Origin: Candidatus Nitrosocosmicus arcticus
GTDB taxonomy: Archaea > Thermoproteota > Nitrososphaeria > Nitrososphaerales > Nitrososphaeraceae
Direction: 5' to 3'
Assembly (NCBI RefSeq): GCF_007826885.1
Contig: NZ_ML675586.1
Location: 1-64,000, forward strand
DNA: 64,000 nucleotides
Position numbers and translations under genes: made by a program. The notes below the pieces were generated by a model. It made no database searches. It had not been told where the DNA came from and saw only the letters and a program-made list of their open reading frames with translations. Positions 24,073 to 52,799 of the stretch are shown here, in pieces (positions within the stretch are counted from its first letter, which is position 1; every line of letters starts with the position of its first letter).

Positions 24073-24987
24073 ATGTCTGAGGGGCCCGAGGTTAAAATTG
24101 CTGCAGACAAAATATGGAATGCGCTATCTGGTAAAAGAATAATTAATAATATTTTGTATAATAAAATGGACAAGGGATTTGAAGATAAAATAATCGGGTC
24201 CTCCACCGAATATGTCAAAACCTTCGGAAAGAACATTATCATAAAATTTTCTTCTGGGGTTTATCTAAGGAATCATATGATGATGTGGGGAAAATGGCGA
24301 ATTTACGACAGGACCGAATATGAAAATGGGACTGCAAAATCACCACCACGTTCCTCCTATGGGAAAATAAAACATAAGAACACAGATAAAATTCAAGTTA
24401 AGAGAGATGAAGTAACAGATGTGAGAAAGGATTCTCGGACTAGATTAACCATTATCACTTTGGATAAAGTTTTGGTTCAGTTTAATGGCCCCATATTGCA
24501 ATTTTCATTGAATGATCCTGCAACTATGGAACCTATTGTATCATTGGGTCCTGATGCATTGAGTTCTAATTATAATGCAGACAAAGTAATGGATATCATA
24601 AAATCTAAATCTAGAAATACTGACATGATAATCTCAAACGCCTTATTAGATCAGAAAATAGTCAGTGGAATCGGGAACAAGTATAAATCAGAAATTTTGT
24701 TCTTAAATAAAATCTATCCTTTTGAAAAAGTGACAACAATCTCTAAGGATGAATTGAAGAAACTCGCAATGGATATACCCAGAATATTGAAATATGGTTA
24801 TGAAAATAGCGGTAAAACAAGAAAGCCTAAAGATAAAGAAAAGATCTCCTGGGATATCACTCATTGGGTATTTAGAAGATCTGGAAAACCTTGTTGGATA
24901 TGCGGGACCAAAATTGTATCAGAAAGAAAATTAACAGCAAGGCCAACTTTTTGGTGTCCTAATTGTCAACCAATCAATGTCCATTAA
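24073..24987 (+). CDS. Fpg/Nei-family DNA glycosylase-like protein with Ser at the catalytic N-terminus
   Basis: 304-residue member of the formamidopyrimidine-DNA glycosylase/endonuclease VIII family, base-excision repair of oxidised bases. The start is MSEGPEV; family enzymes start MPEGPE or MPELPE and use Pro as the nucleophile after Met removal. Glu at position 3 is kept. The H2TH part reads LLDQKIVSGIGNKYKSEILF, and the zinc finger is CWICG...FWCPNCQ. The middle (HMMMWGKWRIYD) is typical. The Pro-to-Ser change (CCT to TCT, one base) may alter chemistry. It is convergent with the DNA ligase, 63 bases apart. Confidence 0.88.
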   Translation: MSEGPEVKIAADKIWNALSGKRIINNILYNKMDKGFEDKIIGSSTEYVKTFGKNIIIKFSSGVYLRNHMMMWGKWRIYDRTEYENGTAKSPPRSSYGKIKHKNTDKIQVKRDEVTDVRKDSRTRLTIITLDKVLVQFNGPILQFSLNDPATMEPIVSLGPDALSSNYNADKVMDIIKSKSRNTDMIISNALLDQKIVSGIGNKYKSEILFLNKIYPFEKVTTISKDELKKLAMDIPRILKYGYENSGKTRKPKDKEKISWDITHWVFRRSGKPCWICGTKIVSERKLTARPTFWCPNCQPINVH

Positions 24988-25049
24988 TATTGGCAGTTAT
25001 AAGCGCAAGGTCTTTTTAATTATATGAGTTGGATCATGCAGCATTAAAA

Positions 25050-26897
25050 CTATTTTTTGTATTCATTTTTATTTTTTATATGGAATTGATTTTGGTATAT
25101 TGCTTCAATTTTTTCTAATTCATCAATGTCTTTTAATTCTTTGTCATATCTGATATTTTTTATTCTAGGAAAACGCAAAGCATATCCGCTGCTGTGTCGG
25201 TTGCTTTTTTGAACGATATCAAAGGAAACTTCTAGAACAATTTCGGGTTTTACAATAATCCGGCTACCTTCATTCCTTATTATAATTGACCTCAATTTCT
25301 CAGTCATATAATCAATCTCTTTATTGGAAAGACCTGAATAGGCCTTACCGATTATTTTAAGGTCACCAAAAACATTATTCCCGTTTTTCGATCCTACTTT
25401 ATCATCATCAAGATTAGTGGTGTAATCTTTTACTGCCAGAGTATAATCGGAGAGGGTCCCTGCTCGTTTTCCATGACCATATTCAGCAATTACTACCACC
25501 GCGTCAATTGTATCTAACTCCTCCTTCAATTTTATCCAATATTTTCCTCTTTTGCCAGGATAATATTGCGATAAAGGATCTTTAAGGACCAACCCCTCAT
25601 GTCCTTCATCTCTACTTTTTCGAAATCCATGTGTTATTTCATCTACGGATGAAACGAACTTACTTTGAGCAATAGAAATCACAGAGTCTTTAAACAGAAA
25701 ATTTGCCAATAATCTCTTTCTAGATTTAAGAGCATCTTTGATTACCTGTCTTTGATCATAGAACATTATGTCATATACAATATAACAAATCGGTATTTCA
25801 GATAAAATGCTGTTTGTCATGCTTTTTCGTCTCAATCGTTTTTGTAGTTCTTGAAATGGCAAGGGCTTATCATTTTTGAAAGCTATTAGTTCACCATCCA
25901 AAATGAAGTTTATATCGTCACGATCTATATCACTGACATCACTTTTATCAAGATATACATTACGCTTTTTTTGACTTGTTTTTACTTTTTTTATTCGTAC
26001 CTGCAAGGCAGAATTAGTTAATTCTGGAAATGCATATGAAATATCAGCAAGATTTCGAGAGTAAAGTTTGCAAACTTTACCGAATTTGTGCAGTTGTAAT
26101 CTAATACCATCATATTTATATTCACAAAGCAGTGACCTGTCAAAATATTTGACAATCTCTTCTGCAGTAAACATGACATCTGCCAACATAAAACTCAGGG
26201 AGACAAATGGCTTAATCGTTACAAAGTTCAAAGTATCTCTTTTCGACAATAAAGCTACATTTGCGATATCACCTGACATCAGCATTGCCTCCCGAACTCT
26301 TTTGATATCTTTTTCAAATGCTTTTGCAATGGCTATTTCCATAAGGCCATCGTAAGAACCTATACGCATTTCATTTGATATTATTTTTATAAGATACTTA
26401 GCCTCCAAAGGTGAACATCTCATAAGTAATCCTTTTAAGATATTTTTTTTATCGTTGTTTGACCGTGGACCTCCAAGATTTGCTATTTTTTTAAACCGAT
26501 CATATATTTCATTTAAAGTTAGTTTTTCTTCCAGAGTTTCTACGCTATTGAATAGTGTTACTAACTTTTTTTTAGAAATTGCATACTCGGCTATGCTACC
26601 CATATCACCGCGTTCTAAATGAATCCGCATAATATCGGTCTCATTTAATCTAGAGATTTCTAATAGAGACTGTAGTATTGTTCTAAACCCTACATTTAGA
26701 TTATGAATTGATCCCCTTGGGAAAATCTTTCCAGACAAAAATAGAACCGCAATAGGCAGAGAATCTTCACCCAAGCCTGAAATATATTGTACGATTAAAT
26801 CGACTTTTTTATTCTTGCTTGTCGTAATCCGTATTGACTCACATGTCTCAACCAATGTAGAAAAATAAGATCCTTTGTGGTGAATATCATTGGTCAC
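25050..26897 (-). CDS. lig: ATP-dependent DNA ligase, archaeal type
   Basis: 615 residues, the usual size for archaeal replicative ligases that seal Okazaki fragments. N-terminal DNA-binding domain ~1-225. The nucleotidyl-transferase motif I is EYKYDGIRLQ with Lys261; motif III-like LDGELIAF, motif IV EGLVLKDP, motif V YWIKLKEELDT follow, then the OB domain with EVSFDIVQKSNRHSSGYALR and RFPRIK. All key motifs look intact. A second ligase domain exists in LigD in this window, so this one is presumably the housekeeping enzyme. Confidence 0.95.
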   Translation of the reverse strand: MTNDIHHKGSYFSTLVETCESIRITTSKNKKVDLIVQYISGLGEDSLPIAVLFLSGKIFPRGSIHNLNVGFRTILQSLLEISRLNETDIMRIHLERGDMGSIAEYAISKKKLVTLFNSVETLEEKLTLNEIYDRFKKIANLGGPRSNNDKKNILKGLLMRCSPLEAKYLIKIISNEMRIGSYDGLMEIAIAKAFEKDIKRVREAMLMSGDIANVALLSKRDTLNFVTIKPFVSLSFMLADVMFTAEEIVKYFDRSLLCEYKYDGIRLQLHKFGKVCKLYSRNLADISYAFPELTNSALQVRIKKVKTSQKKRNVYLDKSDVSDIDRDDINFILDGELIAFKNDKPLPFQELQKRLRRKSMTNSILSEIPICYIVYDIMFYDQRQVIKDALKSRKRLLANFLFKDSVISIAQSKFVSSVDEITHGFRKSRDEGHEGLVLKDPLSQYYPGKRGKYWIKLKEELDTIDAVVVIAEYGHGKRAGTLSDYTLAVKDYTTNLDDDKVGSKNGNNVFGDLKIIGKAYSGLSNKEIDYMTEKLRSIIIRNEGSRIIVKPEIVLEVSFDIVQKSNRHSSGYALRFPRIKNIRYDKELKDIDELEKIEAIYQNQFHIKNKNEYKK

Positions 26898-43775: not shown

Positions 43776-44271
43776 ATACCCATCTGTTAGGATTAAGATA
43801 GTATAAATACGTTTTATCACATTGCCAATAAGTGACAATTTCAAATTAATATATCAAATAAAATCACCATGTTTGAATGTAGAACAGAATGTAGAAAATA
43901 ATCCATCGTATGATGATTCACTCTTAGAATAGATGTATTTTTATAATTCCCCTACCTGAATAAAAACAATTAAACCAAGGTCCTTAGCCGAGACAACATC
44001 TTACAAGGTTGATCACGACCTCACCACACTTTCATTGTTCATTAATCAAGGACATATTAAACCAAAATGTGTAATTTCTTTTTGATTGATAATTTTTAGC
44101 ATCACTTCTGCTTGTTTGCCCGAAGATACAGTAGAAGAGACAAAACAGGAATAAACTAAGATAATTTAAGCTTTAAAACCTTGACTTAACCTTTTTGTAC
44201 GATTTTTTCACAATAATCTAACTGGTAAATATTTAACTAGGTATTTTAGTCTTTGATGAGATTCTATTCTG
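43776..44271. other. Divergent intergenic region, no further gene seen
   Basis: About 500 bases with the promoter of the EEP gene and of a small exported protein (TAAATATTTAACTAGG near 44226). Nothing else is supported. Confidence 0.4.
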
Positions 44272-44460
44272 ATGATACAATATGCAGTAATTTTGATAAT
44301 ATTGCCAATATTGATCTCGATGAATTCCTTCGGTTCTAATGGTCTCGACCTACAAAACATGTCTGAAGACATCAATTACTTGTTTAGTAATTTAACACCA
44401 GACAATCTCGGAGTCAAAGAGCATTCTAATCAGTCTTATAGTATTTCCAGCGCACAATAA
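44272..44460 (+). CDS. Possible small exported protein (62 aa)
   Basis: Hydrophobic N-terminus MIQYAVILIILPILISMNSF followed by a polar Asn/Ser-rich part ending SISSAQ. It looks like a signal peptide plus a short exported peptide. A TATA-like stretch lies ~30-40 bases upstream. No family; the reality of the gene rests on this pattern only. Confidence 0.45.
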   Translation: MIQYAVILIILPILISMNSFGSNGLDLQNMSEDINYLFSNLTPDNLGVKEHSNQSYSISSAQ

Positions 44461-44783
44461 GAACCTCATGAGTCTGGAATAAGTTCAGAGGACAATAATA
44501 TGACTTCATGACAAGAGACTTTAAGACAGATATAAAATATCAAAGAAGGTAAAGTTCGATATCAAAGATCAGTTTTATTTTATTTGTTTATAATTCATTT
44601 CTCGTGTTACCAAAAACACATCGTATTATACATCTGTTGACAGACCATATAATCATTAATCCTAATAAAAAAAAGAAAAAAAATTAACTTACTATCTTTT
44701 GTAAGAAAATACTAATTCAATGTAAAATGATAATTCATGTGTTGTTATAAATACCCAGAAAACCATGTTGTTTTAGATTATCT
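44461..44783. other. Intergenic stretch before Ku
   Basis: About 320 bases, AT-rich. Near 44730-44760 lies the presumed Ku promoter. No gene is supported. Confidence 0.4.
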
Positions 44784-45644
44784 TTGGGAACCAGAAGTGT
44801 ATGGAACGGCAGTATTTCATTTGGTTTAGTAAACATCCCAATAAAGTTATTTACAGTATCAGATAGCAGTAACGAATATTCGTTTAACCAGTTGGATGAA
44901 AAAGGACATAAAATTCAGTATAAAAGGTGGTGTCCAATAGAGGAGAAGGAAATTCCATATGAGGAGATAAAAAAAGGATACAAGATTACAAAGGACGAAT
45001 ACATAATCATAGAAAAAGAAGATCTTGATAAAATTAAAGCAGCAACTACTAAAACAATTGATATCAAAGAATTTACGGACATCAAAAATTTTGACACTAT
45101 TCTTATCGAAAAGAGTTATTATGTCTCCCCTTTTACAGATAAAACCGGTGGGAAAAGAAAAAGCAAACAAAAGGATAGCGTGGTATCTGCTTCCACCAAG
45201 GCCTATAGATTATTTGTTAATTCGCTAAAAGAAACAGAAAAAATCGCAATAGGAAAGGTCGTACTAAAAGATAGAGAACATCTGGTTGCCATTCGTCCTT
45301 ATCAAAGGGGTTTGATAATGCATCAACTAATGTATCAAGAAGAGATAACACCTATAGATGAAATAGATGGGATGCCGGGGTCTGAGTCTTCTGCATCTTC
45401 AGCACCTATAGATGAGAAAGAATTAGAACTTGGGAAAATGTTAATAGGAAACTTGACTAGTTCACAATTTGATCCGACACAGTATTCAGATGAATATTCA
45501 AAACAATTAGAAAAAATGGTAACTGCAAAATCTAAAGGAATCACCTACAAAACAGAAGAAAAAGAAGATTCATTGGATACTAGCAATAACCTAATAGAGG
45601 CCTTGAAAGCAAGTGTTCAAAGAAGCAAAACGGTCAAGAACTGA
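44784..45644 (+). CDS. ku: Ku homodimer protein of bacterial-type NHEJ
   Basis: 286-residue Ku, the DNA-end-binding ring that recruits LigD. The conserved opening is GTRSVWNGSISFGLVNIPIK, followed by RWCPIEEKEIPYEEIKKGYK, the core strand TILIEKSYYVSPF, and EKIAIGKVVLKDREHLVAIR plus the LIMHQLMYQEEI segment. The C-terminal tail (~60 residues) is lysine-rich as in bacterial Ku. The start is TTG at 44784. It is convergent with ligD, 117 bases apart. Ku is unusual in archaea, so transfer from bacteria at some point is the likely origin. Confidence 0.95.
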   Translation: MGTRSVWNGSISFGLVNIPIKLFTVSDSSNEYSFNQLDEKGHKIQYKRWCPIEEKEIPYEEIKKGYKITKDEYIIIEKEDLDKIKAATTKTIDIKEFTDIKNFDTILIEKSYYVSPFTDKTGGKRKSKQKDSVVSASTKAYRLFVNSLKETEKIAIGKVVLKDREHLVAIRPYQRGLIMHQLMYQEEITPIDEIDGMPGSESSASSAPIDEKELELGKMLIGNLTSSQFDPTQYSDEYSKQLEKMVTAKSKGITYKTEEKEDSLDTSNNLIEALKASVQRSKTVKN

Positions 45645-45761
45645 TACTAAATATATACAAGAAAATCTTTGACCGGTGTATATGCCTTAGAAGAATTTGG
45701 GTAATAAGATAACTTCTAAATGATGGTGGTTATGGACCTGACCCTGCAGTTTCTATTTTTC

Positions 45762-48755
45762 TTAAACTTTGAAATCTGAAATGCGTTCAAGTATTTCTTC
45801 AAGATTTTGTCTGTGTGATGAAATATCCTTCCAGGGATTTATCTTTCTTTTATAAAGGTCGGGTACTGTCATCATTATAAAATCAGTAGGTATAATGTCT
45901 ACTAGTTCTTCCCATTTTAGCGGAACTGAAACAGTGGCATCTTCTACTGGCCTGGTTGAAAAAATGGACGCTAGTGTTTTCCCAATAGAATTTTGATTAT
46001 AATCAAAAAACACTTTTCCTTTTCTATCCGTTGTTTTCCATTCTGTAGTAATTTTGCCAGGATTGCGTTTATTCAAGATTTGAGATATCACTCGGGCAAA
46101 TTCTCTCGTTTGTTTGTATGTGTACAAGTTCACTACTGGTAAGAATATGTGCAATCCTGTTTTTCCTGAAGTTTTTACATATGATTTAATATTCAATTCA
46201 TCAAAAATACCTTTCAAACCTAGAGCAACCTCCACAGTCGCTCTAAAAGCCGTTAAACTATACGCGGGTTCCTTTGATTCATTTTCATTATCAATATTTA
46301 TGTATGGGTCCAAGTCAAAAACTATAAAATCAGGATAATTTAAGCCACATTCTTCCGTTTCTATTACATCCATCTTATTGCATTGATTATAATCATTGAC
46401 CCTGCTATTCCATGGATGTATTTCGATACATCCCAAATTTACAAGCCATAGTAAAGTTTCCTTGTTATTGCATACAATATAGTTAATCTCATCACTATTT
46501 GATTCTGAATACACCTTGACTGTTCTAACATAGCAAGGTTTTTCATTTTTCCAATCTTTTTGATAAAACGCTTTTCCATATATTCCATCGGGGTATCTAC
46601 TAAGAGATATGGGCCGGTCTCGAAGGTAAGGTAAAAGATGTTCACTTATTTTATCATAGTATTCTATTAAATCCCCTTTTGTAATAGCTGGCCGATACTC
46701 TGTTGCGCTCCAAAATTCCTTTTTTAAATTGGAAAATTGTTGGTCAATTGCAGTTAGGTGATTATTACCGTTCTCATAATTGGTTATTTTCAAGTCACTA
46801 TCATCATCTTCATCTTTCTTTATTTTATCTGCAATCTTGGGTGAGCTCGTAAGACTTGAATTTTCAATGACACACTGGTGTGGCGGCTTGTCTTCTCTAA
46901 TTCTTAGAAATATAGGTGCCCGCATTATCATATTGTTTGTCCAATTGTTGAATTTCACTTCTAATACTGTCATGGGCCTTACCCATACCGTTTCCCTGTT
47001 AAGATATGGAATGCTATCAACAGGACAATAGGGAATTTCTAATTCTCTTAGTCTCTTATGAATTATAGAGAGACTTTCAAAACTAAATCCACTACCGGTA
47101 TGACCTATAAATCTCAATTTGTTAATGTTGGTGTTGGAATTGGCATTATTATTATTGGTATTAGTACGGGTATAGTTTAGAGTGTCATCTATTGCCGCCG
47201 CAAGTAAGAGAGATCCAAAATAATTTTTTCGGTTGCCCTCACCCCTTGTATAGCCTATCACTATACAATCCTGGGTTTTGATATTCTTTATTTTAAGCCA
47301 GTCTCTTGAGCGGATATCAGAATGATATTTGCTATTCCTATGTTTTCCAATTATCCCTTCCAAGTTCATCCTCCTTACTGTCTCAAAAACATCTATCCCG
47401 AATTCCTCAACAAAGTCAGATATCCTTATTTTTGAGTTCTCTTTCTTAATCAGGTCGACTAATATCTTTCTTCTTTCCGCAAATGGTAGCTGCATGAGGT
47501 TATTATTGTCCAAATATAAGATGTCAAACACGTAATAAACTGCAGGATAAAGTTCAGACAAAATTTCAATACTCTTTCTAGAGTCAATATTCATCCTTTT
47601 TTGATGATTTTGAAAATCGGGGTATCCCTCATTATCTAGAATAACAATTTCCCCATCCAATATAACAAAGTCTTTGAACATATCTTCTCTTAGAGCACTT
47701 TTAAGAGTGTTCTCAAGTTCAGGATAGCGTTGAGTAATAGTATCACCTCTACGTGATTTTATCGTGCAAGTTTTAGTTAGCCTGTCCACAAGGGTGATGG
47801 CCCTGACTCCATCCCACTTTATTTCAAATATCCAATCCTTATTGTTAAATGGTTTATCTGTAAGAGACGATAACATAGGTTTTATTCCTTCAAAGCACAT
47901 CTGTTTAAAGGATTGATTAGCAGGTGATAGATTAATAGCGTCAAGATTATGATCGCCCAAGGTATCTAGTGTATTTGGATTATTTGTGATCTCTGCAGAG
48001 TATTTTAAGTTACTGTTTTCAGCTTTCACATCTTTTTCCAGAGTCTTACTGGACTTGTAGTGCAGTAAATCCATATTTGTTTTTCCTGTTAGCACCGATT
48101 CAGGTCTACTTTCTGTTATATCTTTTACACCATTCTTGTCACTATTGTTTGAGCAGAGTGCAAAATCATCCTCTAATTTAATCAATAGCCACTGATTTTT
48201 AGTTCTAGTCTTCACTAAAGAAAATTTGCCTTTTAATTTCTGCCCATATAATACAAAGGTAATTTTTCCATATTTTTTTTCTAGCTCAGACACGTCTAAA
48301 ACTTCTGGTATTTCCCCTCGATGTTCTTTCGTAGGATATTTTGTTAAGGCATTTTTTTCCAAGCTGTATTCACCGATATCCCACACTATTACAGTTCCAG
48401 CACCGTAGTTTCCTTCAGGTATAACTCCTTCAAATGACAAGTAATCTACAGGGTGATCTTCGGTTTGTATTGCTAGTCTCTTTATGGATGGATCCAGCGA
48501 TGGTCCCTTAGGTATGGCCCAAGATAAGAGAACATTTTCCTTAATAGATTCTAATCTAAAATCATAATGTAGTCTTGTCGCTTCATGTTTTTGTATCACA
48601 AACCGAGGCCTTGATTTTGATGGATCATTATCCTCAATTGAGATGCATGCATCACCTATGGCTGTAAAACTTTCTTTATTCAGATTGTTATTTCCATTGG
48701 GCTCTGGAGAGGCCTTAAAATTTCTTTTCTTCTTGTATTCGTCTAACATGTCCAA
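45762..48755 (-). CDS. ligD: LigD: phosphoesterase, ligase and polymerase fusion for NHEJ
   Basis: 997-residue end-joining enzyme with domain order PE-ligase-polymerase, as in Pseudomonas LigD and unlike mycobacterial Pol-PE-Lig. PE domain ~50-200: FVIQKHEATRLHYDFRLE and FEGVIPEGNYGAGTVIVWD. Ligase ~285-625: motif I FEIKWDGVRAI (Lys313), LDGEIVILD, EGIIGKHRNSKY, WLKIK; a low-complexity N/T insert lies at ~530-545. Polymerase ~685-997: FDLDP at 813-817, KTSGKTGLHIFLPV, and VFFDYNQN. All active-site segments look intact. It resects or heals 3' ends, fills gaps and seals breaks with Ku. Confidence 0.95.
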   Translation of the reverse strand: MDMLDEYKKKRNFKASPEPNGNNNLNKESFTAIGDACISIEDNDPSKSRPRFVIQKHEATRLHYDFRLESIKENVLLSWAIPKGPSLDPSIKRLAIQTEDHPVDYLSFEGVIPEGNYGAGTVIVWDIGEYSLEKNALTKYPTKEHRGEIPEVLDVSELEKKYGKITFVLYGQKLKGKFSLVKTRTKNQWLLIKLEDDFALCSNNSDKNGVKDITESRPESVLTGKTNMDLLHYKSSKTLEKDVKAENSNLKYSAEITNNPNTLDTLGDHNLDAINLSPANQSFKQMCFEGIKPMLSSLTDKPFNNKDWIFEIKWDGVRAITLVDRLTKTCTIKSRRGDTITQRYPELENTLKSALREDMFKDFVILDGEIVILDNEGYPDFQNHQKRMNIDSRKSIEILSELYPAVYYVFDILYLDNNNLMQLPFAERRKILVDLIKKENSKIRISDFVEEFGIDVFETVRRMNLEGIIGKHRNSKYHSDIRSRDWLKIKNIKTQDCIVIGYTRGEGNRKNYFGSLLLAAAIDDTLNYTRTNTNNNNANSNTNINKLRFIGHTGSGFSFESLSIIHKRLRELEIPYCPVDSIPYLNRETVWVRPMTVLEVKFNNWTNNMIMRAPIFLRIREDKPPHQCVIENSSLTSSPKIADKIKKDEDDDSDLKITNYENGNNHLTAIDQQFSNLKKEFWSATEYRPAITKGDLIEYYDKISEHLLPYLRDRPISLSRYPDGIYGKAFYQKDWKNEKPCYVRTVKVYSESNSDEINYIVCNNKETLLWLVNLGCIEIHPWNSRVNDYNQCNKMDVIETEECGLNYPDFIVFDLDPYINIDNENESKEPAYSLTAFRATVEVALGLKGIFDELNIKSYVKTSGKTGLHIFLPVVNLYTYKQTREFARVISQILNKRNPGKITTEWKTTDRKGKVFFDYNQNSIGKTLASIFSTRPVEDATVSVPLKWEELVDIIPTDFIMMTVPDLYKRKINPWKDISSHRQNLEEILERISDFKV

Positions 48756-48910
48756 TTCATTGTAATCGAATATCCTTGAATTACCGGAAAACTGTAAATA
48801 AACATATAGTTACATTTTATAACTCATAAAGTTCGGATAAAAAATTTAAAAGTAGAAAAACTAAATTCCTACATCAGTTTAAAAAAGATGCGCGCCCTTT
48901 CGCAGATCAG

Positions 48911-50611: not shown

Positions 50612-52799
50612 TCACACTATTGTTTTAGAAGGTAAATTCAACACTGGTAAACTAAAACTAAATATTGCCCCATTCTTCTTGTTATTGTCTGCCCGGATTT
50701 TACTTCCGTGCGCCTCGATAATTTTTCTAGAGATATACAAACCAAGTCCATTCCCATCTATCGACTTTGAAAACTTTGTAAATAAATTAGGGATCATTTT
50801 TGGATCTATTCCTTCTCCATTGTCTTCTATGGAGACTTTTATCTTTTGCTTCGTACCTTTTATCTTGATGGACTTTCTCTTCGGCTTTTCAATCTTTATT
50901 GAAATTCGACCTTCTTTTTTTATAGTTTTTTCTCGAAATAGATTTTATCGAATTATAAACTAAATTTGAAACTACTTGTTCAATCCTAGTTCTATCACCA
51001 ATCACAAAATATTTTTCACCAGAATTATTGAACTCAAATTTTATATTTGTCTTACTTTTTCTTAATAGATCTTCAAAATTTTTTATGGTGTTTGATATCG
51101 ACACGCTAAGATTAAACTTTTCCTTTTTTAAGCGAAAAAGATGGTCTTCAATACGTGAAACATCCAGAATGTTTTCAGTTAGGGTATTGAGTTTTTGCCC
51201 ACTTGTAATTACCGAATCAAGCAGTTCGATTTGTTTTTTGTCTTTGAGTTTACCTTTCACATATTCTGTTAGACCGATTATTGGTTGTATTGGACTTCTT
51301 AGTTCATGGGCAATTATATCAAGAAATTCTTTTTGTACTCTTTCATTGGATTGAAGTTGTTCATTAATTTTCTTTAAACTTTCAAACATCTCGGTCTGAT
51401 TCCACAAAGTCTCAAAAATGCCAGTGTAAGATAAAGCCGTAGATTCGCCATCAATAAAAGTAGCGACGCCTGAAGCATCAGGAACATTAGTTTTAGTATC
51501 ATCTTTTATTTTAAGTATGATGGTTTTTGTTCTGTCAATTATTGTAATTCTATTAAGAATTGGAAAATTAAATTGAGATGTCCTAAATTTAATTTCAGAG
51601 TATTTTGTTATTATTTGTTTTAAATGGTCTACCTTATGGCTATGTATTATCAGAATCTTCACTGTAACTCCTCTTGAAGCCAATTCATTTAATTTCTCTA
51701 AACCTCCTGAGTTAATTATCCGTAACAATCCGTTCACAGAGGGAAGTATTATCAAAATTTCTTTCTGAGCAGAAGAATATAATTTGTTAATTAGTCTTAT
51801 GGAGTCATCAGGGTTTGATATTATTTTTGCCTTAAAAAGATCCGTATCCATTAGTTCTTTTATTCTGTCTTTTGCTTCTACAGATTGTTCCCAAATGTTA
51901 TCGAATATTGTAGAAAAATGCTCCAAGTACAGTGGATCGTTACTAATGATTAGATTTGAAAACATTTCCCCGCCTATCATTTTTTCTGTTGTAGAAGCAA
52001 AACATTTATCGCTTATAACAAAATTAATGGACGGCCTATCGGATGTATGTTTTATTTTTATCCCGTCTTTTGTAAATAATTTAACTATATTGATATCGTT
52101 TTTGTCATTTATAGAAGTAATCCATTTGATACCGCTATGCTTTCCTTGTTGATGATCTCGTAGTATTTTCCTATTGATATCGAGGTAATATCTACGACTT
52201 AATTGCATACCACCAATGGTTGAACATGTACGCAGATAATTTGACTCTTTGATTATTTTATATATTTTATCGGCAATTTCTTCAGCACTTTCTAAAACCT
52301 CAGTTTTAATTGGTTCTATTCCATATTCAATTTCTCTGATTCTTTTGAATGCTGGCGTCGAGTGTCTCCAAAGAGTATCAAAAATATATTGGCCCTGTGC
52401 AACTACTTCGCCTACATTGCTGTAGATTACCTCGGTTAATGGCTGTGCTTCTTGAAGGACTGTCGTAGCCATATACTCAGATTCATTGATTGCAATCCCA
52501 CCCTTTAAGCCATCCAGATGCCGTAGTCCACTAACCAAATTTAATAATTCTTTACAATACGGGATATTTTCAGGAGTAACTTCGGTAATGCATCTAATTT
52601 TTCCACCCCGAGCTAAAATATCTTTGTAACCATTACAATAAGCGGGTAGCTTAACTACTATAGACGGAGCCTTATGGTCGAATGTAATATCCATTTTTAT
52701 TTTGGTATTTTGCATAAACCTAATCCCTCTATCTATAGCATTTTCTGACCCGTATAGAATTTCTGATTTTGAAGATTTGGTTTTATTTTTAGATATCAC
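50612..52799 (-). pseudogene. Histidine kinase with three sensor modules, frameshifted before the ATP lid
   Basis: The frame from 52799 encodes three tandem PLD-like sensor modules, each ending in an IFDxLW-type helix (QYIFDTLWRHS ~145, FSTIFDNIWEQS ~300, GIFETLWNQTE ~450). HisKA then follows with DIIAHELRSPIQPIIGL (~H490) and the N box VVSNLVYNSIKSISRK. At ~50915-50935 an A6/A7 region shifts the frame and translation ends at 50889. The next frame carries the rest: VSIEDNGEGIDPKMIPNLF, then NGLGLYISRKIIEAHG to 50612. Removing one A restores an ~728-residue kinase. It autophosphorylates on His and passes phosphate to a regulator. Confidence 0.85.

What the first reader, a model, noticed from the sequence alone, without database searches (positions are those of the whole stretch)
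44784..48755. Complete bacterial-type NHEJ pair (Ku and PE-Lig-Pol LigD) in an archaeon
Ku and a full three-domain LigD lie tail to tail, with active-site motifs intact in PE, ligase and polymerase domains. Bacterial-type NHEJ is known in few archaea (Methanocella paludicola is the established example, with separate proteins). A single-chain LigD with Pseudomonas-like domain order points to acquisition as a unit and may help soil desiccation survival.
Basis: partly seen in the sequence, partly recalled or inferred. Interest (0 to 1): 0.65.

Follow-up and report, generated by a model that had tools for sequence, protein, structure and literature searches.

The report
Known bacterial-type NHEJ pair in Nitrosocosmicus
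This soil ammonia-oxidizing archaeon carries an intact bacterial-type kit for rejoining broken DNA (the proteins Ku and LigD); the kit is real and probably works, but it was already reported for this archaeal group in 2020, so it is an expected find.

Summary
Ku (44784-45644, +) and a 997-aa LigD (45762-48755, -) lie tail to tail, 117 bp apart. LigD has the order PE-LIG-POL, with intact active-site motifs. The genome is of Ca. Nitrosocosmicus type (98% complete, 0.65% contaminated). The pair and its flanks recur in a single-contig relative, so contamination is excluded.

The claimed rarity is out of date. Abby et al. 2020 (PMC7554672) reported a complete NHEJ complex gained from bacteria by the ancestor of Nitrososphaerales, and PMC11936186 lists Ku of three Nitrosocosmicus species. 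In 70 family genomes I find Ku in 40, LigD in 42 and both in 35.

Each protein forms a single Nitrososphaeraceae clade. LigD is closer to Bacteroidota and Gemmatimonadota LigD than to Pseudomonas LigD; the Ku donor is unresolved. Two details I did not see in the papers I read: a close relative has lost exactly this 4.2-kb pair, leaving a clean empty site, and other families of the phylum carry NHEJ as separate Pol, Ku and Lig(-PE) genes. The desiccation role is untested. Already known; interest low.

The parts
44784..45644 (+). Ku, 286 aa, TTG start (no in-frame ATG upstream without a stop)
   Evidence: TIGR02772 235 bits, Pfam Ku; PDB Ku hits by sequence and fold
45645..45761 (.). 117-bp gap between the convergent genes; no terminator-like stem found
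45762..48755 (-). LigD, 997 aa, PE-LIG-POL; likely true start is the ATG at 48749
   Evidence: TIGR02776 452.6 bits; motifs
48168..48623 (-). LigD PE domain, residues 45-196
   Evidence: TIGR02777, Pfam LigD_N; PDB 3n9b, 5dmp
46869..47879 (-). LigD ligase domain, residues 293-629
   Evidence: TIGR02779, Pfam DNA_ligase_A_M and A_C
45831..46682 (-). LigD polymerase domain, residues 692-975
   Evidence: Pfam LigD_Prim-Pol 256 bits

Best explanation
This is a standard two-component prokaryotic NHEJ system. A Ku homodimer threads onto double-strand break ends, bridges them and recruits LigD. LigD's PE domain makes 3' ends ligatable, POL fills gaps, LIG seals the break. Shown here: the genes, domain order, intact motifs, co-occurrence of the two genes across the family, and long retention in one archaeal clade. 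Inferred: expression, interaction and end joining itself. The system most likely entered the ancestor of Nitrososphaeraceae once, LigD from a bacterium, then was inherited with repeated loss and relocation.
For: Full-length family matches over curated cut-offs. Intact PE, LIG and POL motifs and a Ku tail NNLIEALKASVQRSK aligned with the bacterial LigD-contact tail (PMC9638933). Ku and LigD co-occur in the family: 35 both, 5 and 7 single, 23 neither, Fisher p = 6e-8 (not corrected for kinship). Single clades for Ku (100/99) and LigD (SH-aLRT 100). Same locus in single-contig G049.
Against: No activity, expression or interaction data. The presence is patchy: G007, G056, G079 and G083, single-contig family members, have neither gene, and G197 has lost the pair, so it is dispensable. 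The Ku donor is unresolved. Bacterial sampling was from plasmids only.
Confidence: 0.9

Rival explanations
1. LigD and Ku act mainly apart, LigD in gap filling or excision repair and Ku in end protection, with no concerted end joining.
For: Seven family genomes show LigD without Ku and five Ku without LigD. Some genera keep the genes apart. Roles of bacterial LigD-like enzymes in excision repair are published (PMC4770248, seen, abstract only).
Against: Most of the single-gene genomes are drafts, so absences may be gaps. Co-occurrence is strong and the pair is adjacent in all Nitrosocosmicus loci that hold both on one contig. The Ku LigD-contact tail is kept.
Confidence: 0.07
2. The pair is on a bacterial contaminant contig and not in an archaeal genome.
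For: The proteins are bacterial in type.
Against: 139,679-bp contig in a genome with 0.65% contamination; pair and flanks collinear with single-contig G049; nearest sequences are all Nitrososphaeraceae.
Confidence: 0.005
3. Ku and LigD came from different donors and were joined in the archaeon, LigD from a Bacteroidota-like bacterium and Ku from an archaeal pool.
For: LigD is beside Bacteroidota (SH-aLRT 90), Ku beside other archaeal Ku (90/91).
Against: A placement of Ku with Gemmatirosa and Burkholderiales Ku is not rejected (p-AU 0.35); no Bacteroidota Ku was in the sample; long branches meet.
Confidence: 0.3

Closest known systems
NHEJ complex of Nitrososphaerales (Abby et al. 2020, PMC7554672; Ku of Nitrosocosmicus species listed in PMC11936186)
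   Same: Same lineage, same system, bacterial origin proposed
   Different: Nothing essential; this is another genome of the same group. The text read does not give domain order, gene order or loss events.
Bacterial Ku plus three-domain LigD (Pseudomonas, Agrobacterium, Bacteroidota)
   Same: Ku plus one LigD chain; order PE-LIG-POL as in Pseudomonas (Pseudomonas order from my own knowledge and the plasmid-borne P. aeruginosa LigD)
   Different: Archaeal host; about 30% identity to Pseudomonas LigD and 35% to Bacteroidota LigD; longer linkers and an Asn-rich insert in the ligase domain
Methanocella paludicola NHEJ (PMC4797286)
   Same: Archaeal; Ku with PE, LIG and POL activities
   Different: Methanocella has separate proteins, here one chain
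Separate-gene NHEJ clusters in families f18, f20, f40 and f72 of the same phylum
   Same: Archaeal; Ku, POL and LIG
   Different: POL and LIG are separate genes around Ku (LIG fused to PE in f18, f20 and f40); the LIG tree sets them apart from Nitrososphaeraceae LigD

Membership tests
Bacterial-type Ku (TIGR02772) | Full-length match above the curated cut-off | tested here: met
   235 bits against 150, profile 1-259/259
Bacterial-type Ku (TIGR02772) | Ku fold | tested here: met
   Moderate model (pLDDT 63) matches B. subtilis and mycobacterial Ku, Foldseek E 2.6e-19 and below 1e-14; TM-scores only 0.36-0.41, so the overall shape is not well modelled
Bacterial-type Ku (TIGR02772) | Conserved minimal C-terminal tail that contacts LigD | tested here: met
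   NNLIEALKASVQRSK aligned with bacterial tails; sequence only
LigD (TIGR02776, conventional three-domain) | PE, LIG and POL in one chain | tested here: met
   one open frame of 997 aa
LigD (TIGR02776, conventional three-domain) | Catalytic residues of all three domains | tested here: met
   H57, H63, D65, R67, H101, Y105 (PE); K313 (LIG); D814, D816, D918 (POL) (PE roles in PMC8656161)
Two-component prokaryotic NHEJ | Ku and LigD in the same genome, as one system | tested here: met
   Adjacent genes; one Ku and one LigD in G000
Two-component prokaryotic NHEJ | Ku-stimulated end joining | not testable with these tools
   Needs purified proteins or a cell assay

The most novel reading that the evidence does not exclude
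One archaeal phylum holds two NHEJ architectures with different histories: a single-chain LigD of bacterial, Bacteroidota-like descent in Nitrososphaeraceae, and separate Pol, Ku and Lig(-PE) genes in other families. In Nitrosocosmicus the single-chain system can be lost precisely in one step between close relatives.
Probability: 0.6. Interest if true: 0.35.

Novelty: already known. Interest (0 to 1): 0.2.

Why it matters
It confirms at sequence level that soil ammonia-oxidizing archaea carry an intact bacterial-type end-joining kit. Close relatives with and without the genes would make the role of NHEJ in archaeal stress survival testable. The separate-gene systems in other families suggest that archaeal NHEJ is less rare than reviews state.

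Tried and rejected
Contamination: rejected by synteny with a single-contig genome. Inactivation: no broken motif, no internal stop. Mobile element: no integrase or transposase among the flanking genes scanned, no flanking repeat beyond short chance-like matches, no tRNA. Second DNA ligase (25050-26897) as an NHEJ partner: co-occurrence not significant (25 of 33 genomes with it have Ku or LigD, against 22 of 37 without; p = 0.20). Pseudomonas-like origin by sequence: rejected by trees. Ku donor: unresolved. Single-sequence structure prediction of Ku was useless (pLDDT 33). Rfam and tRNA scans of the window found nothing.

Full report
What is there. Ku is at 44784-45644 on + and LigD at 45762-48755 on -, tail to tail, 117 bp apart. 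Ku matches TIGR02772 over its whole length at 235 bits against a cut-off of 150. LigD matches PE, LIG and POL families in that order, and TIGR02776 at 452.6 bits against 373.2. Sequence search of the PDB finds bacterial Ku, and PE, LIG and POL domains of solved NHEJ proteins. Ku begins with TTG, since the only upstream ATG in that frame (44766) is followed by a stop; LigD probably starts at the ATG at 48749. A TATA-like stretch (TTATAAATA, near 44749) lies about 35 bp before the Ku start; this is inspection only.

Active sites. An alignment of 49 LigD proteins shows intact PE residues (H57, H63, D65, R67, H101, Y105, matching P. aeruginosa H42, H48, D50, R52, H84, Y88), the adenylation lysine K313 and the other ligase motifs, and three polymerase aspartates, D814, D816, D918 (PE residue roles from PMC8656161; ligase and polymerase roles from general knowledge of these families). 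Ku ends in NNLIEALKASVQRSK, aligned with the bacterial tail that contacts LigD (PMC9638933). A model of Ku from 20 archaeal sequences is of moderate quality (pLDDT 63) and its best fold matches are bacterial and then eukaryotic Ku.

Where it is. Nearest loci are Ca. Nitrosocosmicus metagenome bins. The assembly G000 has 22 contigs, 98.28% completeness and 0.65% contamination, and the window is the start of a 139,679-bp contig. Single-contig relative G049 has the same pair in the same place with the same neighbours. Contamination is excluded.

How common. In 250 genomes of the order, Ku occurs in 40, all in family f1. In the 70 genomes of that family, LigD occurs in 42, both in 35, Ku alone in 5, LigD alone in 7, neither in 23. 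Many family genomes are drafts, so some single-gene cases are probably gaps. Among single-contig genomes of the family, G041 and G049 have both, while G007, G056, G079 and G083 have neither.

History. Ku from 20 Nitrososphaeraceae forms one clade (100/99). LigD from 36 forms one clade (SH-aLRT 100), beside two Bacteroidota LigDs (90) and then Gemmatirosa, apart from proteobacterial LigDs including Pseudomonas. POL and LIG domain trees also give one clade; in the LIG tree it groups with bacterial single-chain LigD (89) and not with the separate archaeal ligases. Long branches and plasmid-only bacterial sampling limit this. In the Ku tree the clade lies beside other archaeal Ku (90/91), but a tree placing it with Gemmatirosa and Burkholderiales Ku is not rejected (p-AU 0.35). 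So one gain in the family ancestor is well supported, a bacterial source of LigD is likely, and acquisition of both genes together is not shown.

Arrangement. The convergent order is kept in all Nitrosocosmicus loci that hold both genes on one contig and in four of five g4 loci; g3 has the genes on the same strand and in g5 they are apart or on different contigs. Flanking genes are shared with G049 but not with most other species of the genus, so the pair has moved or its surroundings were rearranged.

A precise loss. In G197, about 93-96% identical to G049 around this locus, the flanks are contiguous and 4.2 kb holding only Ku and LigD is missing. The window, about 82% identical to both, has the pair at this site, so absence in G197 is best read as a loss. 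An imperfect repeat of about 20 bp (ATTCG...GATCC) lies at the two edges in G049 and once in G197, as expected of a deletion between short repeats. G197 is a draft, 84% complete; no Ku or LigD match was found elsewhere in it.

What is known. PMC7554672 (2020) states that the ancestor of Nitrososphaerales acquired a complete NHEJ complex from bacteria, with a full archaeal complex described before only from Methanocella paludicola. PMC11936186 lists Ku of Ca. N. exaquare, arcticus and oleophilus. PMC13006922 (2026) notes NHEJ components in arctic clades. The finding is therefore already known for this lineage.

Other archaeal NHEJ. This resembles the Methanocella operon (PMC4797286).

Mechanism. 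The best reading is ordinary Ku-LigD end joining; steps beyond sequence are inferred. The desiccation role is a hypothesis without evidence here.

Noticed in passing
G197:C44 (L182) against L183 6955-11200 and window 43886-48883: Clean empty site: exactly Ku and LigD missing between syntenic flanks, with an imperfect 20-bp repeat at the junction; a precise recent loss.
   Followed up: yes
L130-L150 (families f18, f20, f40, f72): Separate Pol, Ku and Lig(-PE) genes side by side in 21 of 398 genomes of the phylum, unlike the single-chain LigD here.
   Followed up: partly
window 24073-26897: Convergent pair of an Fpg/Nei-like glycosylase and a second, LigB-like ATP-dependent DNA ligase (besides the one on C7); in G098 it sits beside Ku-LigD. 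Its co-occurrence with NHEJ is not significant (p = 0.20).
   Followed up: partly
window 45132-45185: Lys/Arg-rich insert of about 18 residues in Ku (FTDKTGGKRKSKQKDSVV), present in all Nitrosocosmicus Ku read, shorter in g3, absent elsewhere; it might add DNA contacts.
   Followed up: partly
window 50889-52799: Histidine kinase with a HisKA match but no ATPase domain match and almost no counterpart at this place in G049: perhaps a truncated kinase. The genome has about 48 matches to the neighbouring kinase.
   Followed up: no
L001, L008: Public bins titled 'Nitrosopumilus sp.' (MGR_bin297, MGR_bin428) carry Nitrosocosmicus-type Ku, 97% and 64% identical, so their titles are probably wrong.
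   Followed up: no
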